The position numbers and the translations under genes are program-made. From Deltaproteobacteria bacterium (GTDB lineage Bacteria > Desulfobacterota_C > Deferrisomatia > Deferrisomatales > JACRMM01): DNA of 32,418 nucleotides. Below the pieces are notes generated by a model that worked only from the letters and a program-made list of their open reading frames with translations, was not told the DNA's origin and ran no database searches. The stretch covers positions 1 to 32,418 of the forward strand of contig JACRCS010000907.1 in the NCBI GenBank assembly GCA_016218905.1. The letters are read 5' to 3'. This document shows positions 1,935 to 32,418 of this stretch, piece by piece. Each line of letters starts with the position of its first letter. The first letter of the stretch is position 1.

Positions 1935-1969
1935 GGGGCGGCTCCCCCGATCGCCTGGGGAGCCGCCCC
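1935..1969 (+). terminator. Strong hairpin after the UbiD-like gene
   Basis: A perfect 13-bp inverted repeat (GGGGCGGCTCCCC at 1935-1947, GGGGAGCCGCCCC at 1957-1969) with a 9-nt loop starts 5 bases after the UbiD-like stop codon. Only a short pyrimidine stretch (TCTCGTC) follows. It may be an intrinsic terminator, an attenuator or an RNA-stabilising 3' structure. It separates the decarboxylase from the rest of cluster 1. Confidence 0.6.
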
Positions 1970-2005
1970 TCTCGTCCGACGGACTATGCGGGAGGAGCGG
2001 TTGCC

Positions 2006-3790: not shown

Positions 3791-3813
3791 CCGTAATGAA
3801 AGGAGCGAAGGGC

Positions 3814-4997: not shown

Positions 4998-5009
4998 AGG
5001 GAGGGGCTC

Positions 5010-6610: not shown

Positions 6611-6611
6611 G

Positions 6612-7013
6612 ATGAAGGGCATCGATCCCAGGCCACTGATCGACGACGACTCGAGATCCTTCTGGGAGGGCGCCAGAGAGCAGCGGCTGATGATCCAGCG
6701 CTGCGGCGACTGCGGGAAGGCCGTCTTCTACCCCCGGTGCATCTGCCCGCACTGCTTCTCGGAGAAGCTCTCCTGGATCCAGGCGAGCGGCCGGGGGCGC
6801 ATCCACAGCTACACGGTCGTCCACCGGGCCCTGCCGCCCTTCAAGGATCAGACCCCGTACGTCGTCGCCCTCATCGACCTGGAGGAGGGCGTTCGGATGA
6901 TCAGCAGGGTGGTCAGCGATCGCCGGCAGGTAGCGATCGACAAGCCGGTCTCGGTCGTGTACGTGAAGGTGGACGACGAGGTGACGCTGCCGTGCTTCGA
7001 GGTGTCGGCGTAG
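6612..7013 (+). CDS. DUF35 OB-fold protein with zinc ribbon, partner of the thiolase-like protein
   Basis: This 133-aa protein has an N-terminal helix, then a rubredoxin-like zinc ribbon with Cys31, Cys34, Cys45 and Cys48 (CGDC and CPHC), and then an OB-fold domain rich in beta strands (residues ~55-133). DUF35 proteins bind acyl-CoA and form obligate complexes with thiolase-fold partners such as Ltp2-ChsH2 and BbsAB. The gene begins one base after the thiolase-like stop, so the two are very probably co-translated as a complex. The motif GRIHSYTVVHR is characteristic of the family. The last strands end normally, and the protein appears complete. Confidence 0.9.
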   Translation: MKGIDPRPLIDDDSRSFWEGAREQRLMIQRCGDCGKAVFYPRCICPHCFSEKLSWIQASGRGRIHSYTVVHRALPPFKDQTPYVVALIDLEEGVRMISRVVSDRRQVAIDKPVSVVYVKVDDEVTLPCFEVSA

Positions 7014-7059
7014 CGACGAACGCAGGCCCGGTCTCTCCGGCGGAAGAGGTGAGCACGTC

Positions 7060-8643: not shown

Positions 8644-8819
8644 GCCGCGAGGGTTCCGGACGAGCACCGGGTGGTAGCCTCGGCACGGCTAGTGTCCCGT
8701 TTGGGTAGTCCTTGCCCGTAATTGAGCCCCAGCAATGGCCGAGCGGCGCTGATTCGCCGCCGTTCGTCCTAGGCATCGTGACGCGCGAACTAACCGCACG
8801 GGGCACTAGGAGAGGACAC
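8644..8819 (+). other. Intergenic gap before the AOR gene
   Basis: These 176 bases hold no convincing gene. A short inverted repeat (GCGGCG at 8743-8748, CGCCGC at 8755-8760) is the only structure I see. The AOR ribosome-binding site (AGGAGAGGA) is at the end. The reading frame of the AOR gene is open upstream to about 8712, but the translation there does not resemble the family. Confidence 0.4.
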
Positions 8820-10793: not shown

Positions 10794-11068
10794 GCTTCCG
10801 CGACTGCCGCTTCGATTCCAGGACTGCGGGTCAGGACCCGCTCGTCCTGGAGGGGCTCGCCTTCTCCGGCTCACCGCGCCGCACCCGGGACGCGCCGGGA
10901 CCCGTAGGGGCGAGTGACGGCACCGCGCTGAAACGCCGTACTGAAGTCTGGGTCGAACAGGTCTGGCGCCTCGGTGAAACATCGGAATGCGCGACGGGGG
11001 CATCAGTAATGGCAGCTCGTTCCCAATGACACATGTTAAAACATTGTATATTTTCGAGGCGCTAGTCA

Positions 11069-11097
11069 TTGACATTGCACCAACCCGATGGTTGAAT
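11069..11097 (+). promoter_or_regulatory. Sigma-70-like promoter of the ABC operon with internal dyad
   Basis: TTGACA (11069-11074) is separated by 17 bp from TTGAAT (11092-11097), a good -35/-10 pair in an AT-rich patch. The spacer contains the inverted repeat CAACC-CGAT-GGTTG (11081-11094), placed where a repressor would block polymerase. The TetR protein encoded after the operon is a candidate binder. A similar block occurs at 27068-27096. Confidence 0.55.
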
Positions 11098-11120
11098 AAA
11101 CGATGTGAATCGGGCTGCCG

Positions 11121-11158
11121 GCGCAGCCAGGGGCGCGCCGCCCACGCCCTGGCTGCGC
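11121..11158 (+). other. Leader hairpin 1 of the ABC operon
   Basis: A perfect 12-bp inverted repeat (GCGCAGCCAGGG at 11121-11132, CCCTGGCTGCGC at 11147-11158) with a 14-nt loop. It lies about 17 bases after the predicted transcription start, so it would sit at the 5' end of the ABC operon mRNA. Stabilising or attenuating roles are possible. Confidence 0.55.
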
Positions 11159-11208
11159 AGAGGAGGGAGCCGGGTTGATGGAGATGCAGGATCTCGAACG
11201 CCATGGGC

Positions 11209-11241
11209 CAGGCCCCCTCGGACGGTGCCCGACGGGGCCTG
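11209..11241 (+). other. Leader hairpin 2 of the ABC operon
   Basis: CAGGCCCC (11209-11216) pairs with GGGGCCTG (11234-11241). A C-C mismatch then separates it from an inner TCGG/CCGA stem (11218-11221 with 11229-11232) closing a 7-nt loop. It ends 50 bases before the ATPase start codon and has no U tract. With hairpin 1 it makes a structured leader of about 190 nt. Confidence 0.5.
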
Positions 11242-11291
11242 CCCCAAGCCGTCCGGTCGGGCTGGTGACCCCCTTTGGGGAGAGGAACCGA

Positions 11292-13352
<2,061 letters not shown>

Positions 13353-17893: not shown

Positions 17894-17922
17894 GGCCGAG
17901 CCGATTACCGGCGAGCTCGGCC
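17894..17922. terminator. Hairpin between convergent genes
   Basis: A perfect 8-bp inverted repeat (GGCCGAGC at 17894-17901, GCTCGGCC at 17915-17922) with a 13-nt loop spans the 33-bp gap between the TetR gene and the converging sigma-54 activator gene, including the end of the latter. It could act in both directions, but neither side has a T tract. Confidence 0.4.
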
Positions 17923-19560
17923 TCGCGAGCCCTGGCTACCCTCACTCTCGTACTCCTTCAGTTTTCGGAACAGGGTGCACGCACCCAGGCCGAGCGCGGC
18001 CGCGGCGCGCGACTTGTTTCCCCCTGAGGCCTCGATCGCCGAGAGGATGTAGTCCCGCTCGATCTCCTTGAGCTGTCGGATGGGCCCGAAGACGGCGGGC
18101 TTCGGCAGGGCTCCCCGGAGGTACTCGGGAAGGTCCTCGAGGTCGATGCGGTTCCCGTTGCACAGGGCGACCGCGTACTCGACCGCGTTCCGAAGCTCCC
18201 GAACGTTGCCCCGCCACTCGCACCGCAGGAGCTGGTCCGCCGCCCGCGGGGTGAAGCTCGTCACCTCTCGCCCCATCTGCCGGCTGATCTCGCTGAGGAA
18301 CAACCTCGCGAGCGCGAGGATGTCTTCCGGCCGCTCTCTCAGCGGAGGGATGCGGAGCTCGATCACGCGGAGCCGGTAGTAGAGGTCCTCGCGAAAGCGC
18401 CCCCCCTCCACCTCCGCCGCGAGCTCCCGATTGGTCGCGGTGATCACGCGGATATCCACCGGACGGGAGCGATTCTCGCCGACCCGTCGCACGGCCTTCT
18501 CCTGGAGCGCTCGCAACAGCTTCACCTGCATTCCGAGGGAGAGCTCACCGATCTCGTCCAAGAAGAGCGTGCCTCCGCTGGCCGCCTCAAAGAGCCCCGG
18601 GCGTTCCTTGTCGGCCCCCGTAAACGCTCCCTTTGCGTGGCCGAAGAGCTCGCTCTCGAGCAGGCTCTCGGTGATCGCCCCGCAGTTGACGGCGACGAAG
18701 GGACGGCCGGCCCGGGAGGACTCGTCATGGATGAGCTGGGCTACCCGCTCCTTTCCGACGCCGCTTTCTCCGGTGACGATCACCGCAGATTCGACTCTCG
18801 CGATGCGGCGCGCGAGAGCGAGGACGCGCGCCATCGCTTCGCTTCGCCCCACCAGGCCCAACGGGTCGTCGGCAAGCCCCGTCAGGCGCGCGATCTCCTC
18901 CTGATGGGCGCGCAGGCGTTTCTCGGTGTGGTGGAGCGCCTCGGTCAGGCTCTCGAGCGTGGCGTCGAGGGACTCCTTGCGGTAGAAGGGCAGGTGAGGC
19001 TCGATCTCGGGCCCCCAGTCGTCTTTCGCCCGCGCCAGCAGGTGGCACTCCGCATCGCCTTTTCCGCGGCAGCGGTCCTCCAGACAGTAGACCTCCCGGC
19101 CCTCGCAGAACGAGAGGTAGCCGCTCGCAAAGCCCGCCAGGGTCCAGCAGACCGGCTCCTCCGCCGGGCCGAGGTGGAGGAGGTGCTGCTCAGCTTCGTA
19201 GGAGTCCCGCCAGACCTTCTGGACGACGGGAGGGCCGTGGCTCTCCCGCCGCACCGGCATGTCGAGCGCCACCATCCCCTGCAGCATGTGAAGGCGTCCT
19301 CCGGCGAGGCGCCACTCGAGCTCCGAGTCCCAGGGAAACGCCGTGTGCAGGTTCTCTGCGGTCCTCCACCCGTGTGCGTAGCCGAACCGGGTGAGGATGC
19401 CCCGCGCCGCGGTGCTGCCCAGCGTTTCGATCAGCTCCTTCCGGAGCAACCCGAGGGCTACGGCGTCGAGGAGGATCGCCCTTTCCCCCCCGAACCGAAT
19501 GACGCCGCCTTTGGGTTCAAAGGAAAGAAGCTCCCTCAGGTCCAGGTCAGTTGCCTTCAC
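17905..19560 (-). CDS. Sigma-54-dependent activator with XylR-N and V4R sensor domains (XylR/DmpR type)
   Basis: This 551-aa bacterial enhancer-binding protein has the domain order of XylR, DmpR and PoxR. An N-terminal effector domain (about 10-130) leads into a V4R segment with a Cys cluster (Cys152, 159, 164, 172), probably a metal site. A linker coiled region (about 195-225) follows, then the AAA+ domain and a C-terminal Fis-type helix-turn-helix (NKSRAAAALGLGACTLF). The AAA+ domain has Walker A GESGVGKE (264-271), the sigma-54 contact loop GAFTGA (311-316) and LFLDE (332-336). The start is GTG with GGAGAGGG upstream. Family members are activated by direct binding of aromatic effectors. 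It is divergent from the TRAP/mutase operon, and an inverted-repeat site lies 29 bp upstream of its start. It is therefore the likely activator of both sigma-54 promoters and may regulate itself. Confidence 0.93.
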   Translation of the reverse strand: MKATDLDLRELLSFEPKGGVIRFGGERAILLDAVALGLLRKELIETLGSTAARGILTRFGYAHGWRTAENLHTAFPWDSELEWRLAGGRLHMLQGMVALDMPVRRESHGPPVVQKVWRDSYEAEQHLLHLGPAEEPVCWTLAGFASGYLSFCEGREVYCLEDRCRGKGDAECHLLARAKDDWGPEIEPHLPFYRKESLDATLESLTEALHHTEKRLRAHQEEIARLTGLADDPLGLVGRSEAMARVLALARRIARVESAVIVTGESGVGKERVAQLIHDESSRAGRPFVAVNCGAITESLLESELFGHAKGAFTGADKERPGLFEAASGGTLFLDEIGELSLGMQVKLLRALQEKAVRRVGENRSRPVDIRVITATNRELAAEVEGGRFREDLYYRLRVIELRIPPLRERPEDILALARLFLSEISRQMGREVTSFTPRAADQLLRCEWRGNVRELRNAVEYAVALCNGNRIDLEDLPEYLRGALPKPAVFGPIRQLKEIERDYILSAIEASGGNKSRAAAALGLGACTLFRKLKEYESEGSQGSRGRARR

Positions 19561-19588: not shown

Positions 19589-19620
19589 TGTCGAATTGAA
19601 CCAGCTATATCAAAACGACA
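19589..19620 (+). promoter_or_regulatory. Enhancer site (UAS) copy 1 for the sigma-54 activator
   Basis: A 32-bp inverted repeat: TGTCGAATTGA (19589-19599), a 10-bp spacer, then TCAAAACGACA (19610-19620). The arms are 9/11 symmetric and contain the TTGA...TCAA pattern seen in XylR/DmpR sites. A second copy at 26513-26544 matches in 28 of 32 positions. Its centre is about 81 bp before the -24 GG, a normal enhancer distance. It lies between the divergent activator and TRAP genes. Confidence 0.8.
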
Positions 19621-19651
19621 CTAACTTTCCAAACGCAATCTCAAGGAGAGG

Positions 19652-19657
19652 TTGATT
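19652..19657 (+). promoter_or_regulatory. TTGATT box (possible IHF site), copy 1
   Basis: TTGATT lies exactly 33 bases before the -24/-12 element, as it does in the second promoter. TTGATW is the conserved core of an IHF site on this strand. The rest of the IHF consensus is not matched well, so this is tentative. DNA bending between enhancer and promoter is usual for sigma-54 promoters. Confidence 0.4.
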
Positions 19658-19684
19658 TCACGCCCAGGCGCCCGTCCCGGCCGC

Positions 19685-19700
19685 TGGCCCGGCGATTGCA
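19685..19700 (+). promoter_or_regulatory. Sigma-54 promoter of the TRAP/mutase operon
   Basis: TGGCCCGGCGATTGCA matches the consensus TGGCACG-N4-TTGCA at all but one specified position, with GG (19686-19687) and GC (19698-19699) at the required spacing. Transcription should begin near 19711, about 170 bases before the TRAP binding-protein start. The identical 16 bases recur at 26609-26624. Confidence 0.85.
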
Positions 19701-19881
19701 AGCCGTAGGACGATCCAGACGAGCAGCGGGATCAAACGAAGTGTGTCCTTTGGCGGCACGCGAAGGGGAGAGTTGTCATTCCAGCCCCAAGCTCTGGGCA
19801 TATTCCAACGGCGTACTCGCGGGGCCGTTTCCGGTGGATGACGAACCCGGTCAACACGCGCCAACAGACGGAGGACGTACC

Positions 19882-20922
19882 ATGGGCAAGAAATCCATAA
19901 GCCTGCAAATGATTCTTCTCTTCTCTCTCTGTTTCCAGCAAGCGCTGTTTGCCGCCGAAAAGCCGATAGGTTTGGAATTCAGTTCAGTATTTCAGTCAAC
20001 GGCGCCAGTGTTCAAGACACTTGCCGAGATGGGTGACGTCATAGGGGAACGGTCCGCCGGCCGGGTCAAGATAACCATCTATCCAGAAGGTACGCTTACC
20101 TCCGTGCCGCAGACTTATGATGCCGTCGTCAAGGGGATCGCTGACATCGGCCACGGAGCGTTCGTATTCAATCGAGGCAGATTCCCTTTGATGGAGGTGC
20201 TAGACCTGCCTCTCGGCTTGAAGAGTTCAACGGAGGCGACTAAATTAGGAAACGCTTTCCTTAAGAAATTTCAACCCAAGGAGCTCAACGATGTCAAGGT
20301 GCTGCTTATCATGGGGCAGCCCCCGGCAATGCTCCAAACATCGAAGCCGGTCAGGTCTTTTACAGATCTCAGGGGCCTGAAGACACGAGTTGGGGGCGGC
20401 ACGGTCGCAGACATTGTCTCCGCCCTCGGTGCGGTACCGGTGGCGATGTCCATGGGCGATTCCTACGATGCGATGCGGAAGGGCATCATCCAGGCAGTGA
20501 TGTCGGCGTACGAGCCATTGGAAAACAGGAACCTGGCGGACGTAGTCAAATACTCCGTCGAAAACTACTCAACTGCGAACGGCGTTACCGGCTTCGTGGT
20601 CATGAATAAAGCCAAGTGGAATTCGCTCCCACCGGACATCCAGACTATCATCCAGAAAACCGCAGACGAATACACCGAGAAGGTGTCCCGAGCGTGGGAC
20701 GACCAGGAGCAGCACGCCAAACAGTACGCCATGAAGAAGGGGGTCGAGATCGTCAGACTGCCTGCAGCCGAGCAAGCCAAAGCCCTAAGCGCGATCGGAC
20801 CCCTCTATGATAAGTACGTCAAAGACAAGACAGCGATGGGTCTTCCTGCGAAAGAAGCCCTGGCCTTCTGCCAGGAGTACGTCAAGAACCTCCACGCGCA
20901 GGCGAGCGGAGCTAGGCAATGA
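19882..20922 (+). CDS. TRAP transporter solute-binding protein (DctP family)
   Basis: This 346-aa periplasmic protein has a signal peptide at residues 1-24 (cleavage near ALFA-AEK). The DctP fold follows, with the conserved carboxylate-binding Arg in LRGLKTRVGG (R169), and GSYDAMRKG-like and PLEN segments after it. The Arg normally pairs with a carboxylate of the ligand, so the cargo is probably an organic acid. ATG 19882 was chosen because GGAGG lies 7 bases upstream and a signal peptide begins there. The frame is open further upstream without protein-like content. Its stop overlaps the start of the small permease (ATGA). The gene is under the sigma-54 promoter at 19685. Confidence 0.93.
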   Translation: MGKKSISLQMILLFSLCFQQALFAAEKPIGLEFSSVFQSTAPVFKTLAEMGDVIGERSAGRVKITIYPEGTLTSVPQTYDAVVKGIADIGHGAFVFNRGRFPLMEVLDLPLGLKSSTEATKLGNAFLKKFQPKELNDVKVLLIMGQPPAMLQTSKPVRSFTDLRGLKTRVGGGTVADIVSALGAVPVAMSMGDSYDAMRKGIIQAVMSAYEPLENRNLADVVKYSVENYSTANGVTGFVVMNKAKWNSLPPDIQTIIQKTADEYTEKVSRAWDDQEQHAKQYAMKKGVEIVRLPAAEQAKALSAIGPLYDKYVKDKTAMGLPAKEALAFCQEYVKNLHAQASGARQ

Positions 20923-21413
20923 AGTCCTTGTTATGCCCGGTGACGACTCGGTTGAGCAAAGGGCTGCAAACGATATCAGGCATAATCTTGCTTTGCGTAA
21001 TAGTCTTGACCATAGGCGACATTGTGGGAAGGTCCTTTGGGACGCCGATTGTCGGCACTTTCGAACTGGTATCCGCTGCCGGCGGTCTCGTAATCGCCTT
21101 TGCCCTTCCGATGTCTTCAAAAGAGAAGAAGCACGTCATTATCGACCTGCTTCTTGAACGAGTCTCACATAGCTGCAAGACAGTCCTTCACGCCGTGTCC
21201 AGAGTTATAGCCATCGCGCTGCTTCTTGCGCTCAGTTGGGCCTTCGTCCAGATGGGCAAAGACATCCGAGTGAGCGGGGAAGTATCGTCCATTCTGCAGT
21301 TCCCTTTGCACCCCCTGGTCTGGGCCATGGGGGGGGCCTTTCTAGGCGAGTGCCTGGTCGTGTTGGACGAACTCTTAAGTCTCGTGAGGTCCCGGGAGAC
21401 ACGTCATGGGTGA
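20919..21413 (+). CDS. TRAP transporter small permease (DctQ family)
   Basis: This 164-aa inner-membrane protein has four predicted hydrophobic helices (about residues 17-36, 48-66, 91-111 and 130-152), the DctQ topology. The DctQ-like GxxLPMSSKEKKHVIID loop follows helix 2. It overlaps the binding-protein stop by 4 bases and the large permease start by 8 bases, so the three TRAP genes are translationally coupled. It forms the membrane complex with the DctM-type subunit. Confidence 0.92.
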   Translation: MKSLLCPVTTRLSKGLQTISGIILLCVIVLTIGDIVGRSFGTPIVGTFELVSAAGGLVIAFALPMSSKEKKHVIIDLLLERVSHSCKTVLHAVSRVIAIALLLALSWAFVQMGKDIRVSGEVSSILQFPLHPLVWAMGGAFLGECLVVLDELLSLVRSRETRHG

Positions 21414-22744: not shown

Positions 22745-24208
22745 GTGAGAATTCGGAACCGGAAGATCGATGAGGACCTCTTCCTGACTCAGAGGAAAGA
22801 GGTCTTGGCCATGTGGCCAACCGGGTGCGACGTAGACTTGGAAGAGGCAGTTGGGTATCAACGGAGCTTGCCGAAGCACAAGCAGCTGGTGCACCAACTG
22901 AAGGAGGCTAAAGGCTCGGGAAGAGCATTGTTCAACAACCTATCCGGCGTGACTACTCTAAGCCAACAAACCGAATTACTGCTGTATCTGCAAGATGTTG
23001 GAGAGAGCGACCTTCTCCACTCGCACTACGACAGCCTTACGAGAACATGCCGCTTCAAACAGGCCGAAGCCACGATCCAGGAATGTGAGAAAACGGGCAA
23101 GAACCTGCTCAACGGCTTCCCAATCGTAAACTACGGCGTTGTGGGTAACAGGCAGTTGATCGAAGCGATCGACCGGCCGGCGACGGCCTCGGGGCCCGCG
23201 GTGGACTCGCGGCTGGCAGCCGAGATCGGATGCGCTTCCGGCTATACGAAGCTCGTCGCCAACGCCTTCGTCGTCTTTGAAACCTACACGAAGACTGCGT
23301 GTCTCGAAGAGATCATGGCTCATGACCAGTACCGTTGCAGACTGGTCGCGTACTATCAGGAGAGGGGCGCGCCGATCGCCGTCACCGTACCTGCCGGCGC
23401 GGGCGGCGACAATGCACCTGGTGTCGCGCCTCCGAGTCTCGGGACGGCGGGGCGCGTGCTCGGCGCGCTGTTAACCGCGGCCCAAGGGCCTCGGTACCAT
23501 ATTCTATTCACGATTTCCCACGGCAACCTCGTTCAGGACGTCGCCTCGAGCGTCACGAATCAAAAACTTGCGCGCGAATACCTAGACCGTTTCGGTTTTG
23601 ACTCCGTCGAACTGTTCATGGAGAACGGCAATTTGGGGGGGCAGTATCCCCTGGACTTCGACCAGGCCTTTTCCGAGGTACTATATGCCCCGATCGTATC
23701 AGCCTTGAGCGGCGCGCAACTGTGTCAGGTTAAGACCTTTGACGAAACCAGTGGAATCCCGACGAAGGAGAATCAGGCCCGGAGTCTCAGGGCAGCACGA
23801 ATGATGTATAGAATCCTTAAGACTCCCTCGCTCGACTTCGTGAATAGCAAGGAAGTCAAGGCCGAAGCGGAGATGGAGGAGAGAGAGGCGCGAGCGATCA
23901 TCGAGAAAGTACTGGAATTGGGCGACGGCGATCCAGCGATCGGCGCCGTGAAGGCATATGAATACGGGGTCCTGGATAACCCCGTCGCAAACAATCCGCG
24001 CGTACGCGCGGAAGTCATGGGGGTCAAAGACGTTCACGGGGCAGTGCGCTACCTGAACTGCGGGAATCTTCCTTTCACCGGAGAGATCAAAGAGTTTCAT
24101 CGCGAGAAGGTTGCCGAGAGGGAGAAGGTTCTCCAGAGGAAGGCGGACTATGACCTCGTGGTTTCGGATATACGCGCACTGGCCACTGGGGAGTGGCTGC
24201 ACTCGTAG
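22745..24208 (+). CDS. Glutamate mutase E-subunit paralogue A, altered active site
   Basis: This 487-aa protein aligns almost end to end with the E (epsilon) subunit of adenosylcobalamin-dependent glutamate (methylaspartate) mutase, starting with QRKEVLAMWPTG. Compared with remembered C. cochlearium GlmE residues, it keeps Arg100, Tyr181 and the adenosine-contact pair as Lys330/Glu334. Two of the three glutamate-binding arginines are lost (Leu66 and Ser149), and the substrate-contact Glu171 and Tyr177 are both Val. A true glutamate mutase role is therefore unlikely. It could act on another acid, or pair with paralogue B in one complex. Shared SGIPTKE and HGN-L-VQD motifs tie it to B. The start is GTG after GGAGG. 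It follows the TRAP genes. Confidence 0.85.
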   Translation: MRIRNRKIDEDLFLTQRKEVLAMWPTGCDVDLEEAVGYQRSLPKHKQLVHQLKEAKGSGRALFNNLSGVTTLSQQTELLLYLQDVGESDLLHSHYDSLTRTCRFKQAEATIQECEKTGKNLLNGFPIVNYGVVGNRQLIEAIDRPATASGPAVDSRLAAEIGCASGYTKLVANAFVVFETYTKTACLEEIMAHDQYRCRLVAYYQERGAPIAVTVPAGAGGDNAPGVAPPSLGTAGRVLGALLTAAQGPRYHILFTISHGNLVQDVASSVTNQKLAREYLDRFGFDSVELFMENGNLGGQYPLDFDQAFSEVLYAPIVSALSGAQLCQVKTFDETSGIPTKENQARSLRAARMMYRILKTPSLDFVNSKEVKAEAEMEEREARAIIEKVLELGDGDPAIGAVKAYEYGVLDNPVANNPRVRAEVMGVKDVHGAVRYLNCGNLPFTGEIKEFHREKVAEREKVLQRKADYDLVVSDIRALATGEWLHS

Positions 24209-24352
24209 AGGTGGCGGCGTTTCACTCCTCTAGCTGTCGGATTGCTTCTGGGCCTCCCTTACTGTGCGCGTAAGAGTGAGACCCACGAACGGCAGCGCTA
24301 ACAGCCCGGGCCTTGCTCGAAACTCCGAACGTAGCTGAAGGAAGGTCGGTAG

Positions 24353-24790
24353 ATGAGCGCAGTGGCTGGTTTTGACGGCACGGTGATCACGGGCGTGATC
24401 GGCGACGACGTCCACGTCGTCGGTGTACGAATCCTGGAGTACGCGTTGGGGCAGGCGGGCTTCAGGGTAGTGCCGCTTGGAACGCAAGTCTCTCAAAAGG
24501 AGTTCGTGGAAGCCGCCATTGAGAGCAACGCCGACGCCGTTCTGATCTCCTCGTTGAGCGGCCATGCCGAGAGGCTCATCCCCGGGCTCCGGGAAAGGTG
24601 CGTCGAGGCGGGCCGGAGCGACCTACTGCTCTATCTCGGAGGCTACCTGGTCGTAGGCGAGATGCCCTGGGAAGGAGTCGAGAGTAAGTTCAGGAGCATG
24701 GGCATCGACAGGGTTTATCCGCCGAGAACGTCGCCTGCACGCGCTCTGGAGGATCTGAAGGCGGATATTTCGGCTCGGAGGCGGCAATGA
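24353..24790 (+). CDS. Cobalamin-binding S subunit of a glutamate-mutase-like enzyme
   Basis: This 145-aa Rossmann-type B12-binding protein is the usual length for GlmS/MutS. The base-off cobalamin motif D-x-H-x2-G is present as DVHVVG (Asp19, His21, Gly24), with His21 as the lower cobalt ligand. Further signature pieces are SSLSGH, LGGYLVVGE and GIDRVYPPRTSP, which parallel glutamate mutase S subunits closely. It should deliver adenosylcobalamin to the E-like partners. A 144-bp gap separates it from paralogue A, while its TGA overlaps the ATG of paralogue B, so it is translationally coupled to B. No MutL-like chaperone gene is nearby. Confidence 0.93.
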   Translation: MSAVAGFDGTVITGVIGDDVHVVGVRILEYALGQAGFRVVPLGTQVSQKEFVEAAIESNADAVLISSLSGHAERLIPGLRERCVEAGRSDLLLYLGGYLVVGEMPWEGVESKFRSMGIDRVYPPRTSPARALEDLKADISARRRQ

Positions 24791-26226
24791 CGATCAGGAA
24801 CCGGAAGCTGACCGAGGCGGAATTCTTCAAGGAACGGGAAGAGGTGCTCGCGCAGTGGCCGACCGGCAGGAGCGTCGATCTGGAAGAGGCAATCGCTTTC
24901 CACAAGAGTCTGCCTCCCCATAAGAATTGGGTCCACAAAATGAGGCAAGCAAAGGAAAGTGGCCAGATCTACGCGATCACGGGTATGGGCAAGGCGACGA
25001 TCGAGGAACAGATCGAGCTTCTCACCTACGTAGAAAGGGAGGGTCTTGCGGATATTCTGGGGACGTCGCCGGACAGCCATTCGAGACAGAACGATTACGC
25101 CGAAGCAGAGCGAGGTCTCGCCGAGAGCGTGAAGAGAGGCAAGTCCGTCCTCAATGGGCTGCCTCTCGTCAACCACGGAGTGAGTGGATTCAGGAGGGTC
25201 ATAGCCGCGGTAGACTCCCCGATATCTATGAGGTACGACGCCGGGGATCCGCGGCTGATCGACGAGATAGGCTTCGCCGGCGGCCATACCGCTGGTGCAG
25301 CGGACGCACTGATGGCTTTTTGGCACCAGAACGCGACGGTGTCCATCGAGACTTCTATCGCCACGCATCGCTATACCCATAGGCTGCTGGGCTACTACGA
25401 AGAGCGCGGAGTGCCTATCTGTGCATCATGCCAAGGGCTGTACGGTGCTGGGATTTCTCCAAGCCTACAGATCGCGGCAATGATAGTTCAGGTCCTGATG
25501 ATGGCCGAACAGGGCGTAAAGAATATCAGTCTGAAACTTGCAACCCACGGGAACTTAGCTCAGGATGTTTCTAGCGCGCGAGTCTTGGAGAGGTTGACCA
25601 GAGAATACTTGACGCGCCATGGATATCCCGGCGTCGAGCTTTTCCTCGTAGTTACTTTTTCATTGGTACAATACCCTGTAGAGGCCGGGGCGGCCTTCGG
25701 GGTTGTTTTCATGAATACGCTCATGGCGAAGCTGTGCGGGGCACAAGCAAACGACATCCGGACCGTGGCCGAGGCGAAGGGGATCCCGACAAAGGAGGAT
25801 ACTGCCTATACCTTCAGAACCGCGAAGGCCATGGAGCGTTTTCTCGAGACCCAGAAGATCGCAGTGGATGGGAACGCGCTCGAGTTGGAGGCCGGGATGG
25901 TCGATTTGGAAGTGAGATGCATAGTGGACAAGATACTTGAATTTGGTCGGGGTGACGTCGTAGTAGGCACAATCGCCGCCGTCAAGTCAGGCGTACTGGA
26001 TAATCCCTTTTCCACAAACTTGGGCAGCCCGCGCAAGGTAATGTCGATCAAAGACAAGGAAGGCGCAATGCGGTATTTGGAGTTCGGCAACCTGCCCTTC
26101 ACTGAGGATATAGTAGGATTCCACAGGGACAGATTGGCTGACCGCGAAAAAGCAATAGGCAGGAAACTGGATTACGAAGTGCTAATCAGCGACCTGTTCG
26201 CCGTAAGCAATGGCGTCTTGGTGTAG
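24787..26226 (+). CDS. Glutamate mutase E-subunit paralogue B, altered active site
   Basis: This 479-aa second E-like TIM-barrel protein starts with FFKEREEVLAQWPTG and ends with ISDLFAVSNG, like genuine E subunits. Measured against C. cochlearium GlmE from memory, it retains Arg100 and Arg149 but has Gly at 66. Glu171 is Ala, Tyr177 is Ala and Tyr181 is Gln. The Lys of the adenosine site is Arg325, while the Glu is kept (Glu329). It has therefore lost a different subset of substrate residues from paralogue A. Its start overlaps the S-subunit stop by 4 bases, making it the likelier direct partner. GIPTKE and THGNLAQD segments match A. The TAG at 26224-26226 closes the operon. Confidence 0.86.
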   Translation: MTIRNRKLTEAEFFKEREEVLAQWPTGRSVDLEEAIAFHKSLPPHKNWVHKMRQAKESGQIYAITGMGKATIEEQIELLTYVEREGLADILGTSPDSHSRQNDYAEAERGLAESVKRGKSVLNGLPLVNHGVSGFRRVIAAVDSPISMRYDAGDPRLIDEIGFAGGHTAGAADALMAFWHQNATVSIETSIATHRYTHRLLGYYEERGVPICASCQGLYGAGISPSLQIAAMIVQVLMMAEQGVKNISLKLATHGNLAQDVSSARVLERLTREYLTRHGYPGVELFLVVTFSLVQYPVEAGAAFGVVFMNTLMAKLCGAQANDIRTVAEAKGIPTKEDTAYTFRTAKAMERFLETQKIAVDGNALELEAGMVDLEVRCIVDKILEFGRGDVVVGTIAAVKSGVLDNPFSTNLGSPRKVMSIKDKEGAMRYLEFGNLPFTEDIVGFHRDRLADREKAIGRKLDYEVLISDLFAVSNGVLV

Positions 26227-26512: not shown

Positions 26513-26544
26513 TGTCGAATTGAATCCCCTATGTCAAAACGACA
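26513..26544 (+). promoter_or_regulatory. Enhancer site (UAS) copy 2 for the sigma-54 activator
   Basis: TGTCGAATTGA (26513-26523) and TCAAAACGACA (26534-26544) with a 10-bp spacer. Both arms are identical to those of the copy at 19589-19620. Exactly 64 bases separate it from the -24/-12 element, as in the first promoter. It should bind the same activator. Confidence 0.8.
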
Positions 26545-26575
26545 GTGAGCCTGCCGACGGCACCCTAAAACTCCC

Positions 26576-26581
26576 TTGATT
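26576..26581 (+). promoter_or_regulatory. TTGATT box (possible IHF site), copy 2
   Basis: TTGATT lies 33 bases before the sigma-54 element, the same offset as at 19652-19657, although most of the sequence between UAS and promoter has diverged. Conservation of position suggests a bound bending protein such as IHF. The full IHF consensus is not met. Confidence 0.4.
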
Positions 26582-26608
26582 CCGCGCGCAAACGGTACCT
26601 TGAAGCTG

Positions 26609-26624
26609 TGGCCCGGCGATTGCA
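26609..26624 (+). promoter_or_regulatory. Sigma-54 promoter of cluster 2
   Basis: TGGCCCGGCGATTGCA is identical over 16 bases to the element at 19685-19700. GG is at 26610-26611 and GC at 26622-26623. The next gene in this orientation is the enoyl-CoA hydratase at 27154. Confidence 0.82.
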
Positions 26625-27067
26625 CTCCCCCCTCTTGCGAAGGCAGTCGGAACTCCCCAAGCGGCGCACCGGAGTTCGGAAATTCCTCATCAGTCCCGGG
26701 CTTCGCCGGAGCTGGAACGAGCGGAAGGAGTTCGATATCTGACCGCGGACGCGCACCAACCGGTGAGTAGCGTTCCCGGCACGGAGAACCCTACTTCCGC
26801 CGCAGTCGTGCTCATCAGGTCAGCAGCTTCGCGGCGGGCCCGGAGGAGGGCGGTGGACCGTCGCACTGCCCGCTCGCTTCCGCTCGAGCCGGCAATTCGC
26901 CGAGCACTCACGAAATCAAACATTGGCTCTTGGCTTGGAGCAGGAGAACAGAAGAGTACCTGAGGGCTAGGGACATGTGCTGATTTGCACGTACGCACCG
27001 GCGGTCCTCGCCTACTCTTTCCCCGACTCGAGCTTGCAAACGGCTTTCAAAAACCGGAAGATGGGTA

Positions 27068-27096
27068 TTGACAATCAATCCAACGGATGGTGGAAT
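27068..27096 (+). promoter_or_regulatory. Sigma-70-like promoter ahead of cluster 2
   Basis: TTGACA (27068-27073), a 17-bp spacer and TGGAAT (27091-27096). Over a 34-base alignment it matches the ABC operon promoter at 25 positions, including CCAAC and GATGG in the spacer. It would give a short leader of about 50 nt to the hydratase gene. Confidence 0.5.
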
Positions 27097-27153
27097 AAGC
27101 ACCAGCATCGATGCCGCGCAGAGGGTCGGCATCGCAACGCCGAGGAGACGCGT

Positions 27154-27936
27154 ATGCAGAAAGAGACCCTGAGCTACGAGGTGAGAGACCGCGTCGGTGT
27201 CGTGACCATGACGCGCCCCAAGCAGCTCAACGCCATGAGCTCGCGGTTCTTCGCTGAGATGAACCAGGTGCTCGACGAGGCCGAGGCCGCCGACGTGGGC
27301 GCTCTGGTGCTCACCGGGCAGGGCAAGGCGTTCTGCGCGGGGGCCGACGTGGCGGAGGTCCAGACGATGAACACCATCGCCGCCATGACGACCTTCACCA
27401 ATCGCACCCACGAGCTCTTCGTCCGCATGGAGAGCTTCGACAAGCCGATCCTCGGAGCGATCAACGGAATCGCTTTGGGAGGGGGCTTCGAGCTCGCCCT
27501 CGCGTGCGACATGAGGATCGCCTCCAGTGAAGCGAAGCTCGGCCTGCCGGAAGCGAAGATCGGCCTCGTGCCCGGAGCAGGCGGCTGCACTCGGCTCCCG
27601 AAGATGGTCGGGATCGGCAAGGCGCTGGAGATCCTGATCCTGGGCGAGCCGATCACCGCCCGGGAGGCTCACGCCCTGGGCGTCGTCAACTGGGTGGTGG
27701 AGCCGGACCAGCTCGAAAGCGAGGCGCTGCGGATCGCCGGCGTGATGGCGCGGGAGCGCCCGCCGCTATCGATTGCAGCGATCAAGCGCGTCACGCGGTC
27801 GGCCGCCAACAGCGACACGCGCTCGGGCCTCGCGGTCGAGATGTTTGCGGCCCTGGCGCTGTCGTTCACGGCGGACAAGCAGGAGGGGATGAAGGCGCTC
27901 GCCGAGAGGCGGCCGCCGGCCTTCAAGGGTGCCTGA
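27154..27936 (+). CDS. Enoyl-CoA hydratase/isomerase (crotonase family)
   Basis: This 260-aa crotonase-fold protein has the oxyanion-hole segments AFCAGAD (59-65) and GIALGGGFELA (105-115). Both catalytic glutamates of true enoyl-CoA hydratases are at the expected places: Glu113 in GFELA and Glu133 in GLPEAK. It should hydrate a 2-enoyl-CoA to the 3-hydroxyacyl-CoA. I chose ATG 27154 because GAGGAG precedes it. The frame is open from 26977, but that extension overlaps the sigma-70-like promoter and is not protein-like. It is the first gene of cluster 2, 36 bp before the SDR gene, in a position comparable to BbsH in bbs-type pathways. Confidence 0.92.
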   Translation: MQKETLSYEVRDRVGVVTMTRPKQLNAMSSRFFAEMNQVLDEAEAADVGALVLTGQGKAFCAGADVAEVQTMNTIAAMTTFTNRTHELFVRMESFDKPILGAINGIALGGGFELALACDMRIASSEAKLGLPEAKIGLVPGAGGCTRLPKMVGIGKALEILILGEPITAREAHALGVVNWVVEPDQLESEALRIAGVMARERPPLSIAAIKRVTRSAANSDTRSGLAVEMFAALALSFTADKQEGMKALAERRPPAFKGA

Positions 27937-27972: not shown

Positions 27973-28752
27973 ATGGACCTGAAGCAAGTTGTCGCGTTGG
28001 TTACCGGTGGGGCGTCTGGGTGCGGCGAAGGCACGGTGCGCTACTTCCTCGGCAAAGGAGCCAAGGGCGCCGTGATCCTCGACCTGAACGAGGAGAGGGC
28101 GAACCGGATCGTGGCCGAGCTGGGCGCCGACAAGGTGCTCTTCGTGAAGACCGACGTCTCGGACACCGAGGCGGTCGAGGCGGCGGTGAAGGCCGGCGTG
28201 GCGAAGTTCGGCGGCATCAACGTGATCGTGAACGCGGCCGCCATCGGGGCTCCCGGGAAGATCCTCGGCCGGGACGGCCCGATGGACATGAAGAAGTTCG
28301 TGCGCGCGATCCAGATCAACCTCTTCGGTCCCGTGAACGTAATCCGCGCGGGCATCGCCGAGATGGTAAAGAACGCGCCCAACGCCGACGGCGAGCGGGG
28401 CGTCATCGTCAACGTCTCGTCCGGGGCGGCCTACGAAGGGCAGATCGGCCAGGCCGCTTACAGCGCCGCCAAGGCCGGGCTCGTCGGGCTCAACATGCCG
28501 CTCGCCCGCGAGTTCGCCGCCCACGGCGTGCGCGTGATGTCGGTCTCGCTCGGCATGTTCGACACTCCGCTCTACGAGCAGGTCCCCCCCGCGGTGAAGG
28601 ACGACCTCATCCGGCAATCTCTCTTCCCCAAGCGCATGGGGCGCACGGACGAGTTCGCGATGTGCGTCGAGGAGATCGTGCGCAACCCGCTGCACAACGC
28701 GAGAGACTACCGTTTTGACGCCGGACTGATCTTGAGCCCTCACTCGAAGTGA
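27973..28752 (+). CDS. HSD10-like 3-hydroxyacyl-CoA dehydrogenase (SDR)
   Basis: This 259-aa SDR resembles type II 3-hydroxyacyl-CoA / 2-methyl-3-hydroxybutyryl-CoA dehydrogenase (HSD10). Shared features are the TGGASGCGEG cofactor loop (11-20), the GPMDMKKFVRAIQINLFG segment (102-119), EGQIGQAAYSAAKAG (155-169) and FDTPLYEQVPP. The catalytic residues are Ser149/150, Tyr163 and Lys167. It would oxidise the 3-hydroxyacyl-CoA with NAD to the 3-ketoacyl-CoA. The glycine-rich loop has GCG where HSD10 has GLG. SDRs also fill this step (BbsC/BbsD) in benzylsuccinate oxidation, where two are needed; only one is present here. Confidence 0.9.
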   Translation: MDLKQVVALVTGGASGCGEGTVRYFLGKGAKGAVILDLNEERANRIVAELGADKVLFVKTDVSDTEAVEAAVKAGVAKFGGINVIVNAAAIGAPGKILGRDGPMDMKKFVRAIQINLFGPVNVIRAGIAEMVKNAPNADGERGVIVNVSSGAAYEGQIGQAAYSAAKAGLVGLNMPLAREFAAHGVRVMSVSLGMFDTPLYEQVPPAVKDDLIRQSLFPKRMGRTDEFAMCVEEIVRNPLHNARDYRFDAGLILSPHSK

Positions 28753-29953: not shown

Positions 29954-30340
29954 ATGAGCCAGACTCAGAACTTCCAAGATGGGCTTTTCGAGATCGAAGG
30001 TGACTCGATCCGGCTCATCGGTTCGAAATGCAAGTCATGCGGTCGCGTCGTCTACCCCGCGGCGAAGTCGTGCCTCGACTGCTGCCACGAGGAGGTCGAG
30101 CCCCTGAAGCTGAGCAGTACGGGGAAGCTCTACACCTACACCACCGTTCACATGCCGATCCCGCATTTCCCGCCGCCTTTCAACCTCGGCTCCCTCGAGC
30201 TGCCCGAGGGTCTGAGTGTCTTCGCGTCGATCGCCGAGGGCACCGAGCTGAAGGTGGGGTTGCCCGTGCGTCTCGTGCCCGCGGTGCTCTGGCGGGAGGG
30301 CGAGACGGACGTGGTGGGCTACCGCATCGCGGCAACCTGA
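29954..30340 (+). CDS. DUF35 OB-fold zinc-ribbon protein, thiolase partner (BbsA-like)
   Basis: This 128-aa protein has a zinc ribbon with Cys26, Cys29, Cys40 and Cys43 (CKSC and CLDC) followed by an OB-fold domain with GKLYTYTTVHM. Start ATG 29954 removes an upstream in-frame extension that overlaps the acyl-CoA dehydrogenase. It is 20 bp before the Cys-containing thiolase gene, with which it should form a complex like BbsAB. Compared with the DUF35 protein at 6612-7013, it has a Pro-rich HFPPPF insertion in the OB domain and a longer C-terminus, so the two are separate subtypes. Confidence 0.9.
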   Translation: MSQTQNFQDGLFEIEGDSIRLIGSKCKSCGRVVYPAAKSCLDCCHEEVEPLKLSSTGKLYTYTTVHMPIPHFPPPFNLGSLELPEGLSVFASIAEGTELKVGLPVRLVPAVLWREGETDVVGYRIAAT

Positions 30341-30360
30341 GACGCGGGGAAGGGAAAGCT

Positions 30361-31506
30361 ATGAGAGAAGTCGCCATCATCGGCTTTGGACAGACGGTAT
30401 TCGGGAAATTCCCGGAGCGTTCGATCTCCGACCTGGGGGCGGAGGCGGTGCGCGCCGCGCTCAAGGACGCGGGAGTTCCCCCCAAGGAGATCCAGGCAGC
30501 CTACGCCTCGCGGCTCTTCGTCGACCTCATCACCGGCCAGACGATCCTGCGCGACGTCGGCATCACGGACATCGAGGTCACGAACGTGGAGAACGCCTGC
30601 GCCGGGGGCGGCACGGCCGTTCGCGGCCTGTGGAAGGACATCGCCGCGGGCTACTGCGACATCGGCATTGCCGTGGGCGTCGAGTCGATGACCACGAGCC
30701 CCATCGCCGGCAAGCTCATTCCGCCGGCGAAGGACGATGTGGACGGGATGCTCGGCATGACGCAGCCCGCCGTCTTCGCCATGCACGCCCGGCGCCTCAT
30801 GGAGACGCGCGGGGCGACGAGGGAAGACTTCGCGCAGGTGGCGGTCAAATCGCACCATGCGGCCTCGCTGAACCCGTACGCGCAGCACGGGAAGGAAGTG
30901 ACCGTGGAGCAGGTGCTCGGTTCGCGCATGGTCTGCGATCCGATCACCGTCTTCCAGTGCTGCCCGAACACCGACGGCGCCGCCGCGGTCATCATGTGCT
31001 CCATGGACGTGGCGCGCCGCTACACGACCCAGCCGGTGAGGGTGCGCGCCTCGGTGCTCCTCTCGGCGGACTACAACTTCAAGAAGACCGAGATGGCGAC
31101 CTTCGAGGTACAGCGGAAGGCGGCGGCCAAGGCGTACGAAATGGCCGGCCTCGGCCCCCAGGACTTGAACGTGGTCGAGGTGCACGACGCCTTCGCCCCC
31201 GAGGAGCTCATGCACTACGAGGACCTGGGACTCTGCAAGCCCGGCGAGATGATCTCGCTCCTCCGGTCGGGCGCCACGTCGCTCGGCGGCCGGGTCCCGG
31301 TCAACCCGAGCGGCGGACTGCAGTCGCTCGGCCACCCCCTCAGCGCCTCGGGCGTACGAAACGTGGGGGAGATCGTCCAGCACCTTCGGGGCCGTGCCGG
31401 CAAGCGGCAGGTCGCGGGCGCGAAGGTCGGGCTCGCGCAAATGCTCGGGGGCAACGCCATCGGTCTCGAGACCGGGGCGTGCTCGATCCACATCATGTCC
31501 GTCTAG
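30361..31506 (+). CDS. SCPx-type thiolase with intact nucleophilic Cys (BbsB-like)
   Basis: This 381-aa thiolase of the DUF35-associated branch has the nucleophile Cys80 in VENACAGGG. The first active-site His is His275 in VHDAFAPEE, and the second is His325 in LGHPLSASG. The C-terminal loop reads LAQMLGGNAIG rather than the usual Cys-Gly-Gly-Gly, so the second catalytic Cys of standard thiolases is missing. Thiolytic cleavage of a 3-ketoacyl-CoA is therefore likely but with a modified deprotonation step. ATG 30361 follows GGGGAAGGGAAAG. Contrast the thiolase-like protein at 5477-6610, which has lost Cys80 and His275 equivalents. Confidence 0.9.
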   Translation: MREVAIIGFGQTVFGKFPERSISDLGAEAVRAALKDAGVPPKEIQAAYASRLFVDLITGQTILRDVGITDIEVTNVENACAGGGTAVRGLWKDIAAGYCDIGIAVGVESMTTSPIAGKLIPPAKDDVDGMLGMTQPAVFAMHARRLMETRGATREDFAQVAVKSHHAASLNPYAQHGKEVTVEQVLGSRMVCDPITVFQCCPNTDGAAAVIMCSMDVARRYTTQPVRVRASVLLSADYNFKKTEMATFEVQRKAAAKAYEMAGLGPQDLNVVEVHDAFAPEELMHYEDLGLCKPGEMISLLRSGATSLGGRVPVNPSGGLQSLGHPLSASGVRNVGEIVQHLRGRAGKRQVAGAKVGLAQMLGGNAIGLETGACSIHIMSV

Positions 31507-31528: not shown

Positions 31529-31635
31529 TCGCGTCGACGAAAGACGCGACGGTAGCCGGGGTTGTCGCCCCGGCGAGGGGCCCCGCCCGCGACCACAGAA
31601 GGGCCCGCCCGGGAATGTCTTTCCCGGGTGGGCTC
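31529..31635 (+). terminator. Three consecutive hairpins between thiolase and ligase genes
   Basis: Hairpin 1 pairs TCGCGTC (31529-31535) with GACGCGA (31543-31549). Hairpin 2 pairs GCCGGGG (31555-31561) with CCCCGGC (31568-31574). Hairpin 3 pairs GGGCCCGCCCGGGAA (31601-31615) with TTCCCGGGTGGGCTC (31621-31635), 15 bp with two G-U pairs and a 5-nt loop. The last is followed by CTTCGCC. Termination, attenuation or mRNA processing before the ligase gene is likely. Confidence 0.55.
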
Positions 31636-31654
31636 TTCGCCAGCGAGGTTGCAG

Positions 31655-32418
31655 ATGAGAGTGATCGGAGACCTCTCCAAGTTCAACGCGAGGCGCTTTC
31701 CGAACAAGCCCGCGCTGATCCTGGGGGAAGAGAAGCTGACGTACCTGGAGCTCGACCGGCTCTCCAACGCCGTCGCCAACTGGCTCGTCTCCCAGGGGGT
31801 CTCGGCCGGGGACCGGGTGGCCATCCTGGCCCTCAGCAGCCCGGAGTTCGCCGTGATCACGCAGGCGATCGCCAAGGCCGGCGCCGTCTTCGTTCCGGTC
31901 AACGCGCGCTTCTCGCCCGCCGAGATCGCGGTCCTCCTGAGCGGGAGCGACGCACGGGTGCTCTTCCTCGAGCCCGAGTTCCTGGCCGACGTGGAAGAGG
32001 CGTTCGCGTCCTCGACGGCGCGCCCGCAGCGGGTCGTCATCCGTTCGAAGGACGCTCCCGAGGGAATCCACCGCCTGGAGCGGATCCTCGCGGAGCAGCC
32101 GCAGACGCCGCCCGACGTCAAGGTCGACCCATCCTCGCCCACGATGATCATGTACACGGGCGGGACGACGGGCGCGCCGAAGGGCGTTGTCTACTCCCAC
32201 TACATGTTCCTCCGGTGCATCGAGGGCGCGGTGGTGGAGGGGGACCTGGGCCCCACCGACGTGATGCACCTCACCATGCCCCTCTTCCACAACGGGGGCT
32301 ACGCCGCGATGCTCGGCCCCGCTCTGATGGTGGGCGCGACCGTCGTCTGCTACCGCGGGAGCTTCGAGCCCGAGCGCATCCTCGCCGACATCGAGCGCTA
32401 CCGGATCACCCTGACGCA
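31655..32418 (+). CDS. Acyl-CoA synthetase (AMP-forming), 5' part only
   Basis: The first 254 residues of an AMP-forming acyl-CoA ligase are visible; the gene runs off the window end. The phosphate-binding loop is MYTGGTTGAPKG, with Gly where the more usual residue is Ser. The preceding Rossmann-like region includes GDRVAILALSSPEF and AKAGAVFVPVNARFSPAE. MPLFHNGGY matches the fatty-acid/aromatic CoA ligase active-site region. ATG 31655 has GAGG about 8 bases upstream. It follows the thiolase gene after 148 bp of hairpin-rich DNA in the same orientation. It may supply the CoA thioester for cluster 2. Confidence 0.88.
   Translation, partial: MRVIGDLSKFNARRFPNKPALILGEEKLTYLELDRLSNAVANWLVSQGVSAGDRVAILALSSPEFAVITQAIAKAGAVFVPVNARFSPAEIAVLLSGSDARVLFLEPEFLADVEEAFASSTARPQRVVIRSKDAPEGIHRLERILAEQPQTPPDVKVDPSSPTMIMYTGGTTGAPKGVVYSHYMFLRCIEGAVVEGDLGPTDVMHLTMPLFHNGGYAAMLGPALMVGATVVCYRGSFEPERILADIERYRITLT

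What the first reader, a model, noticed from the sequence alone, without database searches (positions are those of the whole stretch)
22745..26226. Candidate new adenosylcobalamin mutase with two different E-type subunits and one S subunit
Seen: two full-length glutamate-mutase E-like proteins (487 and 479 aa) flank one B12-binding S subunit with an intact DVHVVG motif. By alignment from memory to C. cochlearium GlmE, the glutamate carboxylate claw (Arg66, Arg100, Arg149) is Leu/Arg/Ser in paralogue A and Gly/Arg/Arg in paralogue B. Glu171 is Val in A and Ala in B; Tyr177 is Val and Ala; Tyr181 is kept in A and Gln in B. The adenosine-contact Lys/Glu pair is Lys/Glu in A and Arg/Glu in B. Both share an HGN-L-QD segment where GlmE has CGNMIQD. 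Inference: the enzyme rearranges an acid other than glutamate, and A and B may form a heteromeric large subunit or serve two substrates. Known glutamate mutases have a single E type.
Basis: partly seen in the sequence, partly recalled or inferred. Interest (0 to 1): 0.85.

Follow-up and report, generated by a model that had tools for sequence, protein, structure and literature searches.

The report
Two non-glutamate B12 mutases, one operon
An uncultured bacterium carries two vitamin-B12 enzymes that databases call glutamate mutase but that lack the glutamate-gripping residues; they appear to rearrange other acids for a degradation pathway switched on by a phenol-type sensor, although the real substrates are unknown.

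Summary
A (22745-24208) and B (24787-26226) are intact glutamate-mutase E-type barrels around one intact B12-binding S (24353-24790). The carboxylate claw R66/R100/R149 is L/R/S in A and G/R/R in B; E171 is V/A. Predicted folds overlay C. cochlearium GlmE at 1.3-1.4 A.

"Not glutamate" is well supported: both sit in a radiation apart from true glutamate mutase. Methylaspartate ammonia-lyase lies in 44 of 46 canonical loci and 0 of 39 others. "Heteromeric large subunit" is not supported: A-type and B-type each occur without the other elsewhere, and the window's S belongs to B's lineage. Of four two-E operons seen, two give each E its own S. More likely these are two separate mutases sharing S.

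New here: a MopR/CapR-type sigma-54 activator lies divergently upstream. A near-identical enhancer-like element, a 64-bp spacer and an identical -24/-12-like 16-mer precede both the TRAP-A-S-B operon and a beta-oxidation operon. A keeps R100, which in GlmE holds the acrylate half, and is mostly non-polar where the glycyl half binds. That suggests a non-ionic, perhaps aryl, migrating group; this last step is conjecture.

The parts
17905..19560 (-). Sigma-54 activator of the MopR/CapR/PoxR (XylR_N + V4R) phenol-sensor type, divergent from the mutase operon
   Evidence: PF06505, PF02830, PF00158; best NCBIfam MobR, below its cut-off; CapR 6iy8 E 1.7e-95; His and Trp aligned with MopR H106 and W134, and Cys/Glu/Cys/Cys with C155/E178/C181/C189 (counted; roles recalled)
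19589..19620 (+). Putative enhancer, inverted-repeat element, copy 1
   Evidence: 28 of 32 bases shared with copy 2
19685..19700 (+). -24/-12 (sigma-54-like) promoter, copy 1
   Evidence: one mismatch to the consensus; 64 bp after the enhancer
19882..20922 (+). TRAP transporter solute-binding protein DctP (Met at residue 63 of the longest ORF, 19696-20922)
   Evidence: PF03480; translation
20919..21413 (+). TRAP small permease DctQ
   Evidence: PF04290
21406..22707 (+). TRAP large permease DctM
   Evidence: PF06808; TIGR00786
22745..24208 (+). E-type mutase subunit A (R100 and Y181 kept; R66, R149, E171, Y177 lost)
24353..24790 (+). B12-binding S subunit (DVHVVG), B-lineage
24787..26226 (+). 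E-type mutase subunit B (R100 and R149 kept; R66, E171, Y177, Y181 lost; K326 is R)
26513..26544 (+). Putative enhancer element, copy 2
26609..26624 (+). -24/-12 (sigma-54-like) promoter, copy 2, identical 16-mer, same 64-bp spacing
27154..27936 (+). Enoyl-CoA hydratase
   Evidence: PF00378; start chosen by ribosome-binding site
27973..28752 (+). Short-chain dehydrogenase
   Evidence: PF00106
28780..29928 (+). Acyl-CoA dehydrogenase, 55% identical to the one beside A-type in L001
29918..30340 (+). OB-fold/zinc-ribbon (ChsH2-type) thiolase partner
   Evidence: PF01796, PF12172
30361..31506 (+). Thiolase (domain starts about residue 112 of ORF 30028-31506)
   Evidence: PF22691, PF00108; residue 112 from NCBIfam matches
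31562..32418 (+). AMP-forming acid-CoA ligase, cut by the window end
   Evidence: PF00501; open ORF

Best explanation
A and B are two different catalytic subunits of AdoCbl-dependent carbon-skeleton mutases that use glutamate-mutase chemistry on free organic acids other than glutamate. Each forms its own 1:1 complex with the single S subunit; S is natively B's partner and A shares it. A TRAP transporter imports the acid. The mutases turn a branched (2-substituted propionate) skeleton into a linear one, or the reverse, by the radical shift that glutamate mutase uses, with R100 holding the acrylate half. The product is then handled by the co-regulated ligase, acyl-CoA dehydrogenase, hydratase, dehydrogenase and thiolase. 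A phenol-type (MopR/CapR-like) sigma-54 activator switches on both operons through the same enhancer and promoter pair. Shown: sequences, residues, predicted folds, phylogeny, linkage, shared DNA elements. Inferred: catalysis, separate holoenzymes, shared S, operon structure, regulator binding, direction of reaction. Unknown: the substrate.
For: Claw and E171 lost, but R100 kept in 305 of 306 aligned E rows, N123, G68 and D96 in 306, E330 in 304. PMC9545868 (passages): R66, R149 and E171 hold the glycyl half, R100 and Y177 the acrylate half. winA and winB fall in separate supported clades of a 55-row group away from the 13-row GlmE clade. MAL in 44 of 46 canonical and 0 of 39 other loci; CaiB 0 and 18; MmgE/PrpD 0 and 15; DctM 0 and 9 (the MAL, CaiB and MmgE/PrpD references checked by Pfam, DctM). 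A-type with S, no B-type: L001, L002; B-type, no A-type: G005, G006, G016, L137. S nearest to a B-linked S, 75%, against 47-50% for A-linked S. B-S contig matches 18, A-B 0. Two-E operons with one S per E: L208, L040. Enhancer-like element plus 64 bp plus identical 16-mer at both operons. Regulator type. No terminator-like or sigma-70-like match between A and S. L001 pairs A-type with an acyl-CoA dehydrogenase 55% identical to the window's.
Against: No activity or substrate data. A also lost Y177, the second acrylate-half contact. B passes the NCBIfam equivalog cut-off for methylaspartate mutase E (402.2 against 390.1 bits). Only two A-type genome loci were found; G005, G006 and G016 share a class; all are assemblies of unstated completeness. 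L133 shows another 2-E:1-S operon whose S is the window S's next-nearest by identity, 62%. Two X-B contig matches, and by eye two more equal-length pairs of E proteins (P0100/P0102, P0077/P0212), suggest that E proteins pair more than once, which a heteromer would also explain. The 0 A-S matches say little, because A-linked S proteins at 47-50% lie at or below the end of the capped S list. No GlmL reactivase was found in the window. The sigma-54 pattern alone is no more frequent than chance (8 found, 9.3 expected), and the enhancer pattern was built from its own two copies, so its shuffle control is weak.
Confidence: 0.6

Rival explanations
1. A and B form one heteromeric mutase (A-B with S), each barrel contributing different function, as in the two-chain methylmalonyl-CoA mutases.
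For: One S between two E genes, tight gene packing. L133 has S-E-GlmL-E with two different E types. Contig matches P0051/P0093 and P0086/P0099 (about 0.1 expected by shifted lengths). R66 lost in both and R149 only in A.
Against: A-type and B-type each occur without the other in other genomes. No A-B contig match. L208 and L040 give each E its own S, and E-S fusions exist, L222, L223, L227. Neither protein shows decay: end branches 0.22 and 0.26 against a median of 0.3, and 8 and 9 departures at columns conserved in their own types.
Confidence: 0.14
2. A uses a different S encoded elsewhere; the window's S serves B only, and A's position is a recent insertion.
For: S is of B's lineage; a 144-bp gap separates A from S while S and B overlap. 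G433 carries six E genes and at least four S genes.
Against: No -24/-12-like, sigma-70-like or terminator-like match lies between A and S, so A seems to share S's transcript. The host genome is not held, so a second S could not be looked for.
Confidence: 0.14
3. One of the two barrels is non-catalytic (structural or regulatory).
For: B lost the Y177 and Y181 counterparts; most of its nearest relatives have D177 and H181, it has A and Q.
Against: N123, R100, E330 and fold kept in both; Q at 181 occurs in 4 of 306 rows.
Confidence: 0.08
4. Both are ordinary glutamate mutases with an unusual binding site, misjudged by alignment.
For: B exceeds the equivalog cut-off; fold the same.
Against: No gap near the claw in either alignment to GlmE. 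The true-mutase motif is conserved across canonical loci, nearly all with MAL. No MAL found in the window.
Confidence: 0.04

Closest known systems
Glutamate (methylaspartate) mutase GlmE/GlmS of Clostridium cochlearium, PDB 1CB7/1CCW/6H9E
   Different: Upper claw R66/R149 and E171 lost in A; R66 and E171 lost in B; two E per S; no ammonia-lyase found; TRAP and beta-oxidation context
Lysine 5,6-aminomutase and ornithine 4,5-aminomutase
   Different: 8-14% identity; those use PLP and amino acids (recalled)
Acyl-CoA mutases (methylmalonyl-CoA, 2-hydroxyisobutyryl-CoA, isobutyryl-CoA)
   Different: 10-16% identity; those act on CoA esters
MopR/CapR/PoxR/MobR phenol-responsive sigma-54 activators
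   Same: Sensor, V4R, AAA+ and HTH layout; His, Trp and four putative zinc ligands conserved against MopR (roles recalled)
   Different: Below the MobR cut-off (357 of 999 bits); effector unknown
Benzylsuccinate-type beta-oxidation with OB-fold-assisted thiolase (BbsAB)
   Same: ChsH2-type OB protein plus thiolase in both beta-oxidation clusters of the window; BbsB is among the NCBIfam hits
   Different: BbsB scores far below cut-off, 287 and 151 of 750 bits; benzylsuccinate synthase not searched for

Membership tests
Glutamate mutase (methylaspartate mutase) | E-type barrel fold and PF06368 match | tested here: met
Glutamate mutase (methylaspartate mutase) | B12-binding S subunit with DxHxxG | tested here: met
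Glutamate mutase (methylaspartate mutase) | Arginine claw R66, R100, R149 | tested here: not met
   A L/R/S, B G/R/R
Glutamate mutase (methylaspartate mutase) | E171 contacting the amino group | tested here: not met
   V in A, A in B; role from PMC9545868 passages
Glutamate mutase (methylaspartate mutase) | K326/E330 at the adenosine site (role recalled) | tested here: inconclusive
   K/E in A, R/E in B; R326 in 169 of 306 rows
Glutamate mutase (methylaspartate mutase) | NCBIfam TIGR01503 equivalog cut-off | tested here: inconclusive
   A 352.9 (fails) and B 402.2 (passes) against 390.1
Glutamate mutase (methylaspartate mutase) | Neighbouring methylaspartate ammonia-lyase | tested here: not met
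   None found in the window; 44 of 46 canonical loci have it
Glutamate mutase (methylaspartate mutase) | Glutamate/3-methylaspartate activity | not testable with these tools
   Needs assay
AdoCbl-dependent carbon-skeleton mutase (class I, wider kind) | Barrel plus cobalamin-binding domain or subunit with the conserved histidine | tested here: met
Heteromeric two-E mutase | Both E types always together | tested here: not met
   few genomes, draft assemblies
Heteromeric two-E mutase | Physical A-B complex | not testable with these tools
   No multimer prediction or assay available
MopR/DmpR-type sigma-54 regulator | XylR_N + V4R sensor, Sigma54_activat, Fis HTH | tested here: met
MopR/DmpR-type sigma-54 regulator | Response to phenols | not testable with these tools
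   Only residue conservation seen

The most novel reading that the evidence does not exclude
A is an AdoCbl-dependent aryl-acid mutase: it interconverts a 2-arylpropionate (or 2-methyl-3-arylpropionate) with its linear 3-arylpropionate (or 4-arylbutyrate) as free acids. R100 holds the propionate carboxylate, and a largely non-polar pocket (L66, V171, V177; S149 here, mostly L or A in relatives) holds the aryl or benzyl group where glutamate mutase grips the glycyl half. It would convert branched aromatic acids into ordinary beta-oxidation substrates under control of a phenol sensor, with B doing a second rearrangement in the same route.
Probability: 0.12. Interest if true: 0.92.

Novelty: new variant of a known kind. 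Interest (0 to 1): 0.68.

Why it matters
The characterised members of this barrel family known to me act on glutamate (recalled; the titles and abstract starts listed name no other substrate for it, and one search listed no paper). Here a large group of proteins that databases call methylaspartate mutase lacks the glutamate-binding residues and sits with transporters, CoA-transferases and beta-oxidation genes, mostly in uncultured bacteria. That points to a set of undescribed B12-dependent rearrangements of free acids, with residue signatures that sort them. The window adds a regulatory handle (phenol-type sensor, shared enhancer-like element) that makes the substrate class testable, and a clear question about two catalytic subunits sharing one cobalamin carrier.

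Tried and rejected
Own-genome search: no genome is held for the window, so a second S, a GlmL or other E genes in the host could not be looked for. Cobalamin riboswitch or any Rfam family in the window: none at the gathering score. GlmL in the window: no match worth reporting. A-type on plasmids: only distant E proteins, 28-36% identity, in 12 records. E proteins in sampled genomes at 1e-20 with the A-type alignment: 12 of 395 in G014's phylum, 3 of 347 in G001's order, 4 of 200 in G002's family. Among the loci fetched, the A-type motif is in G001 and G002 only. L220 and L221, fetched later, begin with the same LGIDRN letters but are 34-36% identical to A, and I do not count them as A-type. 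G433, with six PF06368 copies, has no A-type (best 42% to A). Fold comparisons: below the AdoCbl mutases only ThiC, IspG and DHPS-type barrels were listed; a family not listed is not excluded. Papers: no text on two-E mutases or non-glutamate E proteins appeared; I saw listings only, apart from passages of PMC9545868. Ligands of TRAP structures near DctP (4n6d, 4pgn, 4nap) could not be checked and one search listed no such paper; I recall aromatic ligands for some and did not use it as evidence. One search used a mis-spaced version of the enhancer pattern and says nothing.

Rows dropped: 13 of the 119 relatives were left out of the lists (four fragments and nine GGSDRNRG-type rows); by eye none of their contig lengths equals an A-type one. 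One of 119 S relatives has no contig length. Only the best 120 rows of each search and the longest contig of each cluster could be compared. In one search, loci of 6 kb or less were dropped; many of those kept are short, so neighbour counts are lower bounds, and related loci are not independent. The 20 loci came later and are not in those counts; none of them matched MAL either. The 306 rows were largely recruited with A and B as queries and over-represent their kin. L003 holds two E genes of one type about 9.5 kb apart and is not counted among the four two-E operons.
Full report
Observation. A and B match PF06368 and S matches the B12-binding domain. The phmmer alignments to GlmE have no gap near these sites up to residue 208. 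AlphaFold models (pLDDT 94.6 and 94.4) superpose on GlmE over 481 and 478 residues at 1.3 and 1.4 A.

What the residues say. In glutamate mutase the glycyl half is held by R66, R149 and E171 and the acrylate half by R100 and Y177 (PMC9545868, passages read). R100 is R in 305 of 306 aligned E proteins, G68, D96 and N123 are invariant, and E330 is E in 304. A keeps R100 and replaces every glycyl-half residue, mostly with non-polar side chains (L66, V171; S149, where most relatives have L or A); it also loses Y177. B keeps R100 and R149. Loss of E171 speaks against an amino-acid substrate for both. That the migrating group in A is non-ionic is inference.

Where they belong. In a tree of 85 representatives winA and winB fall in separate supported clades (smallest starred sets 98, 99 and 95 for winA; 99 and 99 for winB) within a 55-row group (98), apart from the 13-row GlmE group (99) (quick method, SH-aLRT only). 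Of the loci longer than 6 kb, those whose E carries the canonical motif have methylaspartate ammonia-lyase in 44 of 46 and GlmL in 45 of 46, and none has CaiB CoA-transferase, MmgE/PrpD or DctM. The 39 others (window included) have ammonia-lyase in 0, GlmL in 19, CaiB in 18, MmgE/PrpD in 15 and DctM in 9 (reference proteins checked by Pfam). These are counts of related, partly short loci, not independent trials. Genomes in the class of G011 (L013, a Dehalococcoidia MAG) carry up to six E genes of further residue types, many with all three claw arginines.

Are A and B one enzyme? A-type lies with S and GlmL, and without B-type, in L001 (Phyllobacteriaceae MAG) and L002 (Lachnospiraceae MAG); a whole-genome search found one PF06368 in each. 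B-type is the only PF06368 in G005, G006 and G016, which share a class; it adjoins an S in L005 and L006, while no S was seen in L068. It also adjoins an S at L137 in G433, which has no A-type. The window's S is 75% identical to that S in L137, 62% to the S of L133, 57-58% to those in L005 and L006, but 50% and 47% to those beside A-type in L001 and L002, no nearer than canonical S proteins. The 0 A-S matches carry little weight because A-linked S proteins fall near or below the end of the capped S list. So S-B looks like the old unit and A an addition. Operons with two E genes do recur: window (A-S-B), L133 (S-E-GlmL-E), L208 (S-E-S-E) and L040 (E-S-E-S, the first E cut by the contig end, both of one type). 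In two of the four each E has its own S, which fits two mutases in one route. L133, two contig matches of B-clade with another E type (P0051/P0093, P0086/P0099) and two equal-length E pairs seen by eye (P0100/P0102, P0077/P0212) keep a heteromer alive and are the main evidence against my reading.

Regulation and pathway. A sigma-54 activator of the MopR/CapR/PoxR type lies divergently at 17905-19560. The His and Trp that align with MopR H106 and W134, and the Cys/Glu/Cys/Cys that align with C155/E178/C181/C189, are present (counted; their roles in phenol and zinc binding are recalled). TGTCGAATTGAA-N9-TCAAAACGACA, with the same -24/-12-like 16-mer exactly 64 bp downstream, occurs at 19589-19700 before the TRAP-A-S-B genes and at 26513-26624 before the hydratase genes. 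The two 32-base elements share 28 bases. The pattern was built from them, so its empty shuffles prove little beyond the length of the match, and the promoter pattern by itself is not above chance; the case rests on the pair recurring at one spacing in two intergenic regions beside this regulator. Between A and S no promoter-like or terminator-like match was found. The second set has hydratase, short-chain dehydrogenase, acyl-CoA dehydrogenase, OB-fold protein, thiolase and CoA ligase: a full beta-oxidation set. Its acyl-CoA dehydrogenase is 55% identical to the one beside A-type in L001, against 38% or less for the other matches in the loci of over 6 kb held. The simplest route is import, rearrangement to a linear acid, CoA activation, beta-oxidation. 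The order of steps and the direction are inferred.

Verdict. Membership in glutamate mutase proper fails on three tested features (claw, E171, ammonia-lyase neighbour); working like a glutamate mutase is well supported by fold, S subunit and the kept residues, without any assay. B nevertheless passes NCBI's methylaspartate mutase cut-off, so the database name misleads if the residue argument holds. This is a new variant of a known kind, with an unknown substrate and a testable lead to aromatic acids.

Noticed in passing
window 19589-19700 and 26513-26624: Two gene sets share an inverted-repeat enhancer-like element, a 64-bp spacer and an identical -24/-12-like 16-mer beside a phenol-type sigma-54 activator.
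   Followed up: yes
L208, 7107-10918: A genome in the class of a Dehalococcoidia MAG has S-E-S-E, two new E residue types each with its own S, then MmgE/PrpD and GlmL.
   Followed up: partly
L133, 7784-14003: A genome in the class of a Syntrophorhabdus MAG has S-E-GlmL-E-MmgE/PrpD followed by an acyl-CoA dehydrogenase and a tricarboxylate-type (TctA) transporter; the genome (G433) has six E genes.
   Followed up: partly
L069-L071, about 9900-11940: Two Gordonibacter records and a gut MAG carry an E type (QGGDRNNSNEHT) with S, GlmL and MmgE/PrpD: a possible cultivated host for a non-glutamate E protein.
   Followed up: no
L222, L223, L227: E and S domains in one long ORF (649-695 aa), a natural 1:1 fusion.
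   Followed up: no
window 445-10793: UbiD decarboxylase, acyl-CoA dehydrogenase, SDR, two MaoC-type proteins, thiolase plus OB protein, CoA ligase and aldehyde ferredoxin oxidoreductase: a second beta-oxidation-like cluster upstream, without the shared enhancer-like element.
   Followed up: partly
window 26640-27150: About 500 bp between the second promoter-like site and the hydratase start with no gene recognised; a TTGACA box lies near 27069.
   Followed up: no
window, both strands: Long overlapping and antisense ORFs are common; GC is 64%, so most are probably a composition effect.
   Followed up: no
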